This document shows, in pieces, positions 5,168 to 8,187 of a DNA stretch of 8,710 bases. The notes beneath the pieces are model-generated. The model did no database searches and was not told where the DNA came from. It saw nothing but the letters and a program-made list of their open reading frames with translations. The stretch is taken from contig JALHTN010000042.1 of NCBI GenBank assembly GCA_022865865.1, positions 1-8,710 of the forward strand, in the 5' to 3' direction. The translations under genes were made by a program, and so were the position numbers. Position 1 is the first letter of the stretch, and each line of letters starts with the position of its first letter. This DNA comes from Anaerolineales bacterium (GTDB lineage: Bacteria; Chloroflexota; Anaerolineae; Anaerolineales; UBA4823).

Positions 5168-5198
5168 TTCCCGAACCTTCTTGCGAGGAGATCTTGTT

Positions 5199-6128
5199 TT
5201 GAAAACAATCCGTGTGAAGCTCAATCCGGTTATATATTTCTTCCTGCTTCAATTGATAGTAATCAGCGGGTGCAGTCCTGGTTCACCGTCTATCAGCGAA
5301 CAAACACCAGAACCAAGTGCTACATTGGTACCTACTCCCTCACCCACTATCACTCCCCCACCACCGACTCCAACCGAAACAATCTCTCCACCCACGGCAA
5401 CGTTTACCCAAACAACTACCAACACTGCATCACCAACTGCGACCAGCCAACCTCCCACTATTGTGGTTGATCAAAATTTGACCTGCCGTACAGGACCGGG
5501 GCTGATCTATGATATCAGGGCTTACCTATCGCAAGGTGTCGAACCAATACTGCTTGGGCAATCTGAAGACAATACCTGGTTGATGGTAGAAGAGCCCGAA
5601 TTCAAAGCTGCCTGTTGGATATCCTCGGAATATGTAACGCTGCAGGGAAACCCAGGTCTCCTCCCAGTTTTTACACCCGAACCTACGCCAACACCTATCC
5701 CAAGTCCCACACCGAAACTGAAAGGGTTGAAGGTCTTCCTGGTAAATTTGGATACCGGGGGACCATTTGGTTGTGGTGATGGGTTAGTTTATTTTTTCAC
5801 CGGCAAACAGCGTACCGGCAGTGTCGAAGGAAATATCAGGTCAGCACTCAATGCTCTATTTAAGCTCAAAACCGAGTATGTAGGTGAATCCTACAATCCC
5901 GTGCATAATGCCCACCTGCACGTTACAGGTGTGGATGTGATTGAAGAAACTGGCCATGTCTTTATCTATCTCGCTGGATCGATCCCCAAACCTCCCGATG
6001 TGTGTGAAGCCAAGAGGATTCATGATCAGATTTGGGAGACAGTCAGAGAGATCTCAGGGCATCGAAAGGTCACTATCCGGGTAGGCACAAAGTTGTTGGG
6101 GGATTTGATCGCTGTCGGAGATCGCTAG
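5199..6128 (+). CDS. Secreted lipoprotein with SH3b and GerMN-like domains
   Basis: The preferred start is the TTG at 5199, because GAGGAG at 5185-5190 stands 8 bases before it; the TTG at 5181 lies upstream of that site. The 309-residue product opens with a basic N-terminus, a hydrophobic stretch and the lipobox ISGC (Cys25), so it should be lipidated and surface-anchored. Then come a Pro/Thr-rich linker (about 36-86), an SH3b domain (about 88-150, with LTCRTGPG and a Cys96/Cys139 pair) and a second Pro/Thr linker (157-173). The C-terminal domain (about 175-309) has a GerMN-like pattern: KVFLVN, GCGD, SALNALFKL, VFIYLAG and VCEAKRIHDQIWETV. SH3b domains often bind cell-wall peptides. GerMN is known from spore germination and sporulation proteins but is widespread in non-sporulating Chloroflexota. 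I infer an envelope role; no enzyme motif is seen. It stands alone on its strand. Confidence 0.82.
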   Translation: MKTIRVKLNPVIYFFLLQLIVISGCSPGSPSISEQTPEPSATLVPTPSPTITPPPPTPTETISPPTATFTQTTTNTASPTATSQPPTIVVDQNLTCRTGPGLIYDIRAYLSQGVEPILLGQSEDNTWLMVEEPEFKAACWISSEYVTLQGNPGLLPVFTPEPTPTPIPSPTPKLKGLKVFLVNLDTGGPFGCGDGLVYFFTGKQRTGSVEGNIRSALNALFKLKTEYVGESYNPVHNAHLHVTGVDVIEETGHVFIYLAGSIPKPPDVCEAKRIHDQIWETVREISGHRKVTIRVGTKLLGDLIAVGDR

Positions 6129-6139
6129 TCTAATAACAA

Positions 6140-6168
6140 TCTCTCCCGGGATGAATTTCCGGGAGAGA
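6140..6168. terminator. GC-rich hairpin after the lipoprotein gene, possible terminator
   Basis: CTCTCCCGG (6141-6149) and CCGGGAGAG (6159-6167) form a perfect 9-bp stem, extended by an outer T-A pair, 11 bases past the TAG. There is no T-tract on the plus side. The minus side is only moderately T-rich, so it may instead stop the opposing 6S-like transcript or stabilise an mRNA 3' end. Confidence 0.5.
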
Positions 6169-6190: not shown

Positions 6191-6369
6191 AAAGAAAATA
6201 CCCCACCGTGTCGTGTGCAGCTAAGTTCTGAACCTGCCTTCGCAGGGTGGGTCCCGCCTCGACAGCTCCGCCTTGGCTCAGGCCTATCGCGTCATTGCCG
6301 TAAGACTGAGACCCATAAAGTGTTTGTTGGCTCAGAACCGGATTGCAGCAGCACGCACACAGCAGGGTC
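6191..6369 (-). ncRNA. ssrS: 6S RNA candidate, downstream of aspS
   Basis: Read on the minus strand, about 179 bases fold into an interrupted rod. The closing helix pairs 6368-6357 with 6200-6211 (12 pairs including wobbles). A second short helix pairs 6354-6351 with 6215-6218, and a 10-bp helix pairs 6338-6329 with 6225-6234. Then a symmetric bubble of 13 bases per strand (6328-6316 and 6247-6235) precedes a 6-bp helix (6315-6310 with 6253-6248) and a 56-base terminal region. The 3' bubble strand can form the small hairpin CCTGC-GAAG-GCAGG. A closing stem, a central bubble with a 3'-strand hairpin and a terminal arm are the known shape of 6S RNA, which mimics an open promoter and sequesters housekeeping RNA polymerase. 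An extended -10 lies 6 bases before the predicted start, and the 3' end reads TATTTTCTTT. I recall the B. subtilis bsrA gene lying next to aspS, which supports the call. Identity rests on structure and position, not on a profile search. Confidence 0.6.
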
Positions 6370-6375
6370 AATAAT

Positions 6376-6384
6376 TTTATACCA
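6376..6384 (-). promoter_or_regulatory. Extended -10 promoter of the 6S-like RNA
   Basis: The minus strand reads TGGTATAAA, a TGn extension plus a near-consensus -10, six bases before the predicted RNA start at 6369. A -35-like TTGTCT lies 22 bases upstream of the hexamer (6409-6404), too far for normal spacing, so the extended -10 probably compensates. It lies just past the aspS stop, so the RNA can be made independently of aspS. Confidence 0.5.
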
Positions 6385-6420
6385 CAGAACTGATCACTTG
6401 AGTAGACAAAACTGATAAGT

Positions 6421-8187
6421 CTAATCAATGACCCGCAAATGCAGTTCACGCAGCTGCTGGGCTTCGACCTGCGAGGGTGCATCCGCCATCACATCGCGGG
6501 CAGCTTGGTTCTTGGGGAAAGCGATCACCTCCCGGATGTTGGGCTCATCTGCAAAAATCATGCACAAGCGATCCATACCAAGAGCAATTCCTCCGTGGGG
6601 TGGAGTCCCAAACTCGAAGGCCTCCAGCATGTGACCAAATCGCTCAGCGGCTACTTCAGGATCCAGCCCGATCAGTTTAAAGACTTTTTCCTGCAGTTGG
6701 CGATCATGGATCCGGATCGAACCACCGCCGACTTCGTAATCGTTAACCACCATATCGTACTGCTGACCACGTGCCTTACCAGTATCACTGTCCAGCAATG
6801 GCAAATCTTCAGGCTTTGGAGAAGTAAATAGATGGTGACTCGGATCCCAGCGCTTCTCAGCCTCATTCCAAACAACGAATGGAAAATCAACGATCCAGCA
6901 GAAAGCCAACACTTCTGGATCTCTTAAATTCAAGCGATCAGCAAGCTGGACCCTCAGCCGGCCCAAAGACTCAGAAACAACCTCTGCCTTGTCAGCAACA
7001 AAGAGCAATAAATCTCCAGGTTGAGCATCAAATCGTTTTAAGATTGCCTGCTGGTCTGCATCAGACAGGAATTTGGCGAAGGAGGATCTCTGTTCTCCCG
7101 CAGCTGTTACCGCCAGGTACGCCAAGCCTCGTGCGCCGAACTGGCTCACATACTCAACCAATCCATCGATCTCTTTGCGGCTGTAATCTCCCAAACCACT
7201 GGCGTTGATACCAAATACCTTTCCACCACTGGAAACAGCTCCCTCAAAGACCTTAAATCCGCTGCCGCTGGCGATATCGCTGATATCTATTAACTCCATA
7301 CCGAAACGCAAATCCGGATTGTCTTTGCCAAAGCGCAGCATCGCTTCTTGATAGGTCATGCGCGGCCATGGGCTGGCTAACAAACGCTTTTCGGGTACCA
7401 ATGCAGACACCATCTTGGTAAACATTTCTTCGATCAGTGCCATGATGTCTTCCCGGTCGATAAATGACATCTCGACATCCAGCTGGGTAAATTCCGGCTG
7501 CCGGTCCCCGCGCTGGTCTTCATCCCGGAAACAGCGCGCGATCTGGAAATAACGCTCCATTCCGGCTACCATCAGCAGCTGTTTCAACTGTTGGGGAGAT
7601 TGGGGAAGAGCATAAAATTCACCCGGGTGTACTCGCGAAGGCACCAGGTAATCCCGGGCACCCTCTGGGGTGGTTTTGAAGAGGATTGGGGTCTCAATTT
7701 CGAGGAAGCCCTGCTGGTCGAGAAAGTCACGGATGAATTTTACTACCCGGTGCCGCAAGATCAGGTTATTTGTCATGCGTTCGTGACGCAAATCCAGGTA
7801 GCGATAACGCAGCCTGATTTGTTCGTCCACCTCTTCCTCTTTATTTATGGGGAAGGGAGGTGTTTTCGCAGGATTGAGCACTTTCAATTCCTGCACTTCT
7901 ACTTCGATTTCACCCGTAGCAAGATTGGTGTTTTTCATTCCTTCGGGTCTTTGGCGAACAATTCCTCGGACCTGGATCACCCATTCAGCACGTAAAGGCT
8001 CAGCTTCCTGGTGGGCTTGTGGGGAATTATCCGGGTTGAAAACCACCTGCACAAAACCAGAGCGGTCGCGCAGATCGATAAATGTTACTCCGCCATGATC
8101 TCTCCTGCGATTCACCCAACCCGATAATTTTACTGATTGTCCTTCATCAGTAAGTGTTAATTTCCCACAGGAATAGGTTTCATCCAT
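6421..8187 (-). CDS. aspS: Aspartate--tRNA ligase, non-discriminating type (AspRS / AsxRS)
   Basis: This is a full-length 588-residue bacterial AspRS. The N-terminal OB fold (about 1-105) contains [13 protein letters not shown] and reads the anticodon. The class II core has the flipping loop [16 protein letters not shown] (170-185), QSPQ (196-199), motif 2 FRDED (220-224) and motif 3 GIALGMDR (533-540). The bacterial GAD insertion lies at about 285-415. The ATG at 8187 has GGAGG six bases upstream. His31 and Gly83 are the residues reported for non-discriminating AspRS such as that of Pseudomonas aeruginosa; E. coli AspRS has Leu at the His position. The enzyme should therefore charge both tRNA(Asp) and tRNA(Asn) with Asp, with GatCAB completing Asn-tRNA(Asn). 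The leader upstream looks like an attenuator and a 6S-like RNA lies downstream. The family call is very secure; the specificity call is an inference from two residues. Confidence 0.98.

What the first reader, a model, noticed from the sequence alone, without database searches (positions are those of the whole stretch)
6191..6369. Unannotated 6S-like regulatory RNA directly downstream of aspS
The gap after aspS is not empty. On the minus strand it shows about 28 pairs in an interrupted rod, a symmetric 13+13 base bubble with a hairpin on its 3' strand, an extended -10 six bases before the predicted 5' end and a U-rich 3' end. This is the known architecture of 6S RNA, and 6S beside aspS is what I recall for Bacillus. 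If right, it is the housekeeping polymerase decoy of this lineage, where sequence divergence could hide it from standard annotation.
Basis: partly seen in the sequence, partly recalled or inferred. Interest (0 to 1): 0.78.

Follow-up and report, generated by a model that had tools for sequence, protein, structure and literature searches.

The report
A 6S RNA gene beside aspS
The gap next to the aspartyl-tRNA synthetase gene of this Chloroflexota-type bacterium holds an ordinary but easily missed 6S RNA gene, a small RNA that in well-studied bacteria switches off the main RNA polymerase by imitating an open promoter.

Summary
The minus strand at 6371-6196 scores 63.8 bits over the full length of Rfam's 6S model RF00013 (threshold 46.4). 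It is reported only with permissive filters: Rfam's fast-filter run over the window misses it, and the four nearest relatives behave alike. Folding beats shuffled sequence (z -4.68). Two structure-blind alignments (18 and 33 sequences) show strong covariation over the rod. An extended -10 (TGNTATA) sits 12-16 bases before the 5' end in 50 of 72 homologues. A lineage model finds one copy above background in 19 of 20 genomes carrying related aspS genes.

The gene lies just after aspS, same strand. That order holds in 28 of the 30 best-scoring Bacillota loci, 0 of 30 from the phylum of Desulfuromusa, 1 of 30 Armatimonadota. It is known for B. subtilis (PMC11077062) and S. aureus (PMC3386247). 6S RNA in Chloroflexi is already reported (cited in PMC7726162).

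Verdict: a genuine new member of a known kind. Polymerase binding and product-RNA synthesis are inferred from the family, not shown.

The parts
6196..6371 (-). 6S RNA (ssrS) coding region, 176 nt by model match; likely 5' end near 6369
   Evidence: RF00013 63.8 bits, model 1-187; lineage model R1 184.8 bits (the window is among the sequences R1 was built from)
6376..6384 (-). extended -10 promoter element TGGTATAAA
   Evidence: TGNTATA at -12 to -16 in 50 of 72 homologues; 1 match in 34 shifted control offsets x 72
6345..6367 (-). closing stem, 5' arm (pairs with 6201-6221)
6201..6221 (-). closing stem, 3' arm
6329..6338 (-). inner stem, 5' arm (pairs with 6225-6234)
   Evidence: 97-99% of cells paired, with two-sided changes
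6225..6234 (-). inner stem, 3' arm
6326..6339 (-). predicted product-RNA template GGUUCUGAGCCAAC (predicted pRNA 5'-GUUGGCUCAGAACC)
   Evidence: by homology to the B. subtilis 6S-1 pRNA 5'-GUUCGGUCAAAACUA (PMC12005410); conservation; inference
6315..6328 (-). central bubble, 5' strand
6235..6248 (-). central bubble, 3' strand, with hairpin CCUGC-GAAG-GCAGG (second arm ends at 6233)
   Evidence: conserved in A1 and A4; 3 pairs in the ground state, 5 when the template is blocked
6249..6314 (-). apical arm, with covarying basal stem and conserved internal loop GAUA/AAG
6140..6168 (-). terminator-like hairpin (10 pairs, loop 9) followed by a T-rich tract, 28 nt beyond the 6S model end
   Evidence: such hairpins in 45 of 72 homologues (7-21 of 72 in ten shuffles); with 8 or more pairs 41 of 72 (0-4 in shuffles)
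6421..8187 (-). aspS, aspartyl-tRNA synthetase, same strand, directly upstream of the 6S gene
   Evidence: Pfam PF00152, PF02938, PF01336

Best explanation
The feature is the 6S RNA (ssrS) gene of an Anaerolineales-like Chloroflexota bacterium. It is transcribed on the minus strand from its own extended -10 promoter about 50 nt after the aspS stop codon, probably ends at a hairpin 28 nt beyond the mature 3' end and is then trimmed (inferred). The RNA folds into a rod with a central bubble that imitates an open promoter (structure supported by covariation). By family analogy it binds the housekeeping sigma-RNA polymerase holoenzyme in slow-growing cells. When nucleotides return, the polymerase copies the 5' bubble edge from C6326 into a short product RNA, predicted 5'-GUUGGCUCAGAACC. 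That opens the inner stem, lets the 3'-strand hairpin grow from 3 to 5 pairs, and releases the polymerase (inferred; only the refolding was computed).
For: RF00013 at 63.8 bits over its full length, threshold 46.4. MFE z -4.68. Covariation in A1: 18 of 53 pairs with two-sided changes, score 0.299, 0/500 shuffles as high, slid versions at most 0.088. In A4, MAFFT-aligned, 32 homologues outside A1 plus the window: 29 of 53 pairs, score 0.285, 0/500 shuffles, slid versions at most 0.091. Extended -10 in 50 of 72. One copy above background in 19 of 20 genomes. Template edge GAGCCAAC: 7 of 8 positions invariant in A1; in A4 all but one at 90% or more. Hairpin extension on blocking the template. B. 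subtilis 6S-1 has the same 5' neighbour and a similar product RNA.
Against: No transcript, binding or product-RNA data exist here. The fast-filter Rfam run does not report it. The promoter lacks a TTGACA-like -35. The outer named helix has no two-sided change in A1 and some of its pairs fail in 13-16 of 33 in A4. The aspS link is not universal in Chloroflexota: aspS or asnS was hit within about 1.5 kb in 13 of 30, aspS itself in 3. Refolding on release differs between E. coli (hairpin) and B. subtilis (central bulge collapse helix; PMC12005410, passage), so the release step assumed here is uncertain. The window's own genome is not held, so a second copy there was not excluded. A4 members were found with a model built from A1, so A4 is not fully independent.
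Confidence: 0.96

Rival explanations
1. A long inverted repeat acting as terminator or 3' stabiliser of the aspS mRNA, not a separate RNA.
For: It starts about 50 nt after the aspS stop on the same strand, and the scan found no terminator between them.
Against: It matches a specific 187-position model end to end, has its own conserved promoter at near-fixed distance, and the same sequence core is found without a nearby aspS hit in other genomes (flanks held are about 1.5 kb).
Confidence: 0.02
2. A different RNA-polymerase-binding RNA of the Ms1 type that binds the core enzyme instead of the holoenzyme.
For: Ms1 is structurally related to 6S (PMC9130861, abstract seen).
Against: The RF00013 match over its full length is above threshold and was the only family reported at E <= 1 in the window. 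Ms1 is described there for Actinobacteria. The predicted template edge is conserved.
Confidence: 0.02
3. A protein-coding gene: the 97-codon minus-strand frame 6482-6189, or the 66-codon plus-strand frame 6215-6415.
For: Both frames are open in the window; the 97-codon frame stays open in 2 of the 4 nearest relatives (L001, L003).
Against: The 97-codon frame has no Pfam match and is broken by a stop in the other 2 of 4 (L002, L004). Substitutions follow base pairing. The plus-strand frame was not tested further.
Confidence: 0.005

Closest known systems
6S / SsrS RNA, Rfam RF00013
   Same: Full-length model match above the gathering score, closing stem, central bubble, apical arm, 3'-strand hairpin
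   Different: Not reported by the fast-filter run in this clade; apical internal loop sequence GAUA/AAG conserved in the lineage
Bacillus subtilis 6S-1 RNA (bsrA)
   Same: Directly downstream of aspS (PMC11077062, passage seen); product RNA starts GUU and runs into the same helix (PMC12005410)
   Different: B. subtilis has a second paralogue, 6S-2; 19 of 20 genomes here carry one copy above background. The B. subtilis 3' neighbour is yrvM; here it is a convergent lipoprotein-like gene
Staphylococcus aureus 6S RNA
   Different: That operon is T-box controlled; Rfam reported no T-box in this window, which holds about 520 bases upstream of aspS

Membership tests
6S RNA (RF00013) | Covariance-model score at or above the gathering score over the whole model | tested here: met
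   63.8 bits, cut-off 46.4, positions 1-187; not reported with fast filters
6S RNA (RF00013) | Rod with closing stem, central bubble and apical stem, supported by compensatory changes | tested here: met
   two-sided changes in 18 and 29 of 53 pairs, 0/500 shuffles as high
6S RNA (RF00013) | Free-standing gene with its own housekeeping-type promoter | tested here: inconclusive
   Extended -10 conserved at near-fixed distance, 50 of 72, but no -35 consensus and no hit in the generic scan; no transcript data
6S RNA (RF00013) | Conserved template edge in the 5' side of the bubble for product-RNA synthesis | tested here: inconclusive
   GAGCCAAC conserved; initiation site inferred from B. subtilis
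6S RNA (RF00013) | Binds sigma-70/sigma-A RNA polymerase holoenzyme and accumulates in stationary phase | not testable with these tools
   needs RNA and protein experiments
6S RNA (RF00013) | Templates a short product RNA that releases the polymerase | not testable with these tools
   Consistent refolding in silico only
Ms1 RNA | Binds RNA polymerase core without sigma; described in Actinobacteria | not testable with these tools
   Only RF00013 was reported in the window at E <= 1

The most novel reading that the evidence does not exclude
The aspS to 6S order is an old gene pair shared by descent between Bacillota and Anaerolineae, kept because read-through from the aspS promoter adds to 6S levels and ties polymerase shutdown to aminoacylation or amino-acid supply.
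Probability: 0.2. Interest if true: 0.5.

Novelty: new member of a known kind. Interest (0 to 1): 0.25.

Why it matters
It adds a 6S RNA gene in a poorly studied, mostly uncultured lineage and shows that a fast-filter annotation setting misses it there although its score is well above the curated threshold. The shared aspS neighbourhood gives a simple positional way to look for 6S genes in part of the Anaerolineae. It also touches a question left open in print for S. aureus (PMC3386247, passage): whether 6S expression responds to amino-acid or uncharged-tRNA pools through its aspS neighbour.

Tried and rejected
Generic sigma-70 promoter and terminator scans found nothing; the extended -10 and the terminator-like hairpin came from comparison and purpose-written scripts. 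The window's own genome is not held, so copy number was judged from genomes behind the aspS loci. RF00013 at genome scale missed G001, G002 and the true site of G004, which led to wider use of the lineage model R1. My first flank table read minus-strand loci of the genome search in the wrong orientation; it was redone and only the corrected table is used. The terminator part used a wrong wobble rule (it let A-C through instead of G-T) and gave 37 of 72 against 13 shuffled; it was redone and only one search is used. A conserved CTAC block (CTACCC, CTACTC or CTACCA) with an 18-base spacer to TATA in 16 of 52 promoters looked like a special -35, but in G003 a wider pattern gave 2 sites against 9 for the reversed control, so no promoter class is claimed. 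The conserved apical loop was considered as a new module, but the RF00013 consensus also has an internal loop there, so it is only noted. Wehner et al. 2014 is not held; its Chloroflexi statement is taken from a citing paper. In four searches no listed title or abstract start reports aspS-linked 6S in Chloroflexi; most of the listed papers were not opened, so this does not prove absence.

Full report
Window and neighbours. Minus-strand 8187-6421 is aspS. Its closest relatives in the genome collection are Chloroflexota metagenome-assembled genomes, 84% protein identity. The convergent plus-strand gene 5181-6128 has no Pfam match. The 6S candidate lies in the gap between them. No tRNA was found.

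Identity. cmscan of 701 bases with permissive filters gives RF00013 at 6371-6196 minus, 63.8 bits, E 2.9e-12, model 1-187, gathering score 46.4; the whole window with the same kind of filters gives the same hit as the only one at E <= 1. The gathering-mode run with Rfam's fast filters reports nothing in the window. The four nearest relatives score 58.5-65.0 bits with permissive filters and are all missed in gathering mode. Of ten loci given to gathering mode, a 6S was reported in nine; the tenth, L003, is of the window's clade and was missed. The blind spot therefore concerns this clade, not the family.

Structure. The single sequence folds at -82.2 kcal/mol, z -4.68, 0 of 200 shuffles as good. 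Eighteen sequences (the window and 17 Chloroflexota-type loci) were aligned by MAFFT without structure (A1). The RNAalifold consensus has 53 pairs, 18 with two-sided changes. Counting gives 94.8% of cells paired (shuffled 87.6, slid 34-44) and covariation score 0.299 (shuffled 0.152, slid at most 0.088), 0 of 500 shuffles as high. The structure was derived from this alignment, which favours it. A second MAFFT alignment, A4, holds the window and 32 homologues outside A1; the A1 structure, mapped through the window row, gives 91.3% paired (shuffled 83.9, slid 36-44), 29 pairs with two-sided changes and score 0.285 (slid at most 0.091), 0 of 500 shuffles as high. A4 members were found with a model built from A1, and I gave only part of the hits, mostly the better-scoring ones, so A4 is not fully independent.

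Inner, 6329-6338/6225-6234: two-sided changes in 2 of 10 pairs in A1 (helix 2, 98.3% paired) and 5 of 10 in A4 (helices 2 and 3, 97-99% paired). Outer, 6357-6367/6201-6211 (11 pairs): in A1 no two-sided change, 4 pairs with one-sided changes such as G-C to G-U; in A4 two-sided changes in 3 pairs, while the pairs at columns 8-10 fail in 13-16 of 33 rows, probably because part of the relatives carry one extra base there. Most of the covariation lies in the apical stem and the inner end of the closing stem.

Promoter and end. TGNTATA starts 12-16 bases before the model 5' end in 50 of 72 distinct homologues; 34 shifted offsets gave 1 match in all (73 hits, L109 dropped as a duplicate of L032). 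The window has no TTGACA-like -35 (best 3 of 6), while 7 of the 52 promoters with TGNTATA have 5 of 6 at a 17-base spacer. A terminator-like hairpin follows within 130 nt in 45 of 72, against 7-21 of 72 in ten shuffles; with 8 or more pairs, 41 of 72 against 0-4. In the window it spans 6168-6140, 10 pairs and loop 9. This suggests a longer precursor that is trimmed (inference).

Copy number and spread. With R1, 19 of 20 genomes behind the aspS loci give a match; 18 have one, and G004 has a second at 16.6 bits, E 0.86, taken as chance; G006 has none (at most 137 candidates scored per genome). In 301 Chloroflexota genomes R1 finds 60 and RF00013 finds 66, 54 of them over its cut-off, both with strict filters; comparing the two lists by handle gives 54 shared, 72 in all. 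G003, a relative with a complete chromosome, is found by R1 only in that pair of runs. Of the 301, 229 gave nothing; strict filters and few scored candidates make 72 a lower bound.

Synteny. Of 80 aspS loci, 31 have a same-strand 6S match downstream within the 3 kb held (4 cut by the locus end, L076 weak at E 0.0029); one more (L033) is on the other strand; several loci hold little downstream sequence. In some, asnS lies between (L006, L011). In the 30 best-scoring loci per phylum, a same-strand upstream aspS hit within about 1.5 kb was seen in 28 of 30 Bacillota, 0 of 30 of the phylum of Desulfuromusa and 1 of 30 Armatimonadota; in Chloroflexota 13 of 30 had a hit, 3 aspS and 10 asnS. Phylum names follow the record titles of the genomes used as centres. 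These are the top hits of 119, 99, 101 and 301 genomes, not random samples. The order is known in B. subtilis (PMC11077062, passage; Suzuma et al. 2002 is seen only as a reference) and S. aureus (PMC3386247, passage).

Mechanism. In B. subtilis the 6S-1 product RNA is 5'-GUUCGGUCAAAACUA (PMC12005410, passage). The homologous edge here predicts 5'-GUUGGCUCAGAACC from template 6339-6326. Blocking that template in silico leaves the closing and apical arms and extends the 3'-strand hairpin from 3 to 5 pairs. The same paper says that E. coli 6S forms a hairpin on release and B. subtilis 6S-1 a central bulge collapse helix (passage); which applies here is not known. Binding to polymerase, product-RNA synthesis and growth-phase control are inferred from the family.

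Known or new. 6S RNA in Chloroflexi is reported (Wehner et al. 2014 as cited in PMC7726162, passage). The finding is a new member of a known kind, with a useful note on detection and a cross-phylum gene order whose cause is open.

Noticed in passing
6371-6196; L001-L004: Rfam's fast-filter mode misses a 6S RNA that scores 58.5-65 bits against a threshold of 46.4 in this clade.
   Followed up: yes
L008:4877-5040: A short 164-nt 6S-like RNA downstream of aspS whose closing stem runs directly into a T-rich tract, as if the rod itself served as terminator.
   Followed up: no
upstream of 6384; 16 of 52 promoters: A conserved CTAC block (CTACCC, CTACTC or CTACCA) with an 18-base spacer to TATA stands where a -35 would be; some sister loci have TTTACA, TGGACA or TTGTCA there.
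   Followed up: partly
6294-6266: The segment with internal loop GAUA/AAG in the apical arm is better conserved (mean commonest base 0.85-0.88) than the stem below it (0.60-0.68) and the loop above it (0.51-0.64).
   Followed up: partly
genome G108: One Chloroflexota genome carries two 6S matches, 64.2 and 54.0 bits with R1.
   Followed up: no
L232: One Armatimonadota locus also has an aspS hit upstream of its 6S gene.
   Followed up: no
5181-6128: Plus-strand lipoprotein-like ORF with a Thr/Pro-rich stretch and no Pfam match, convergent with the 6S gene.
   Followed up: no
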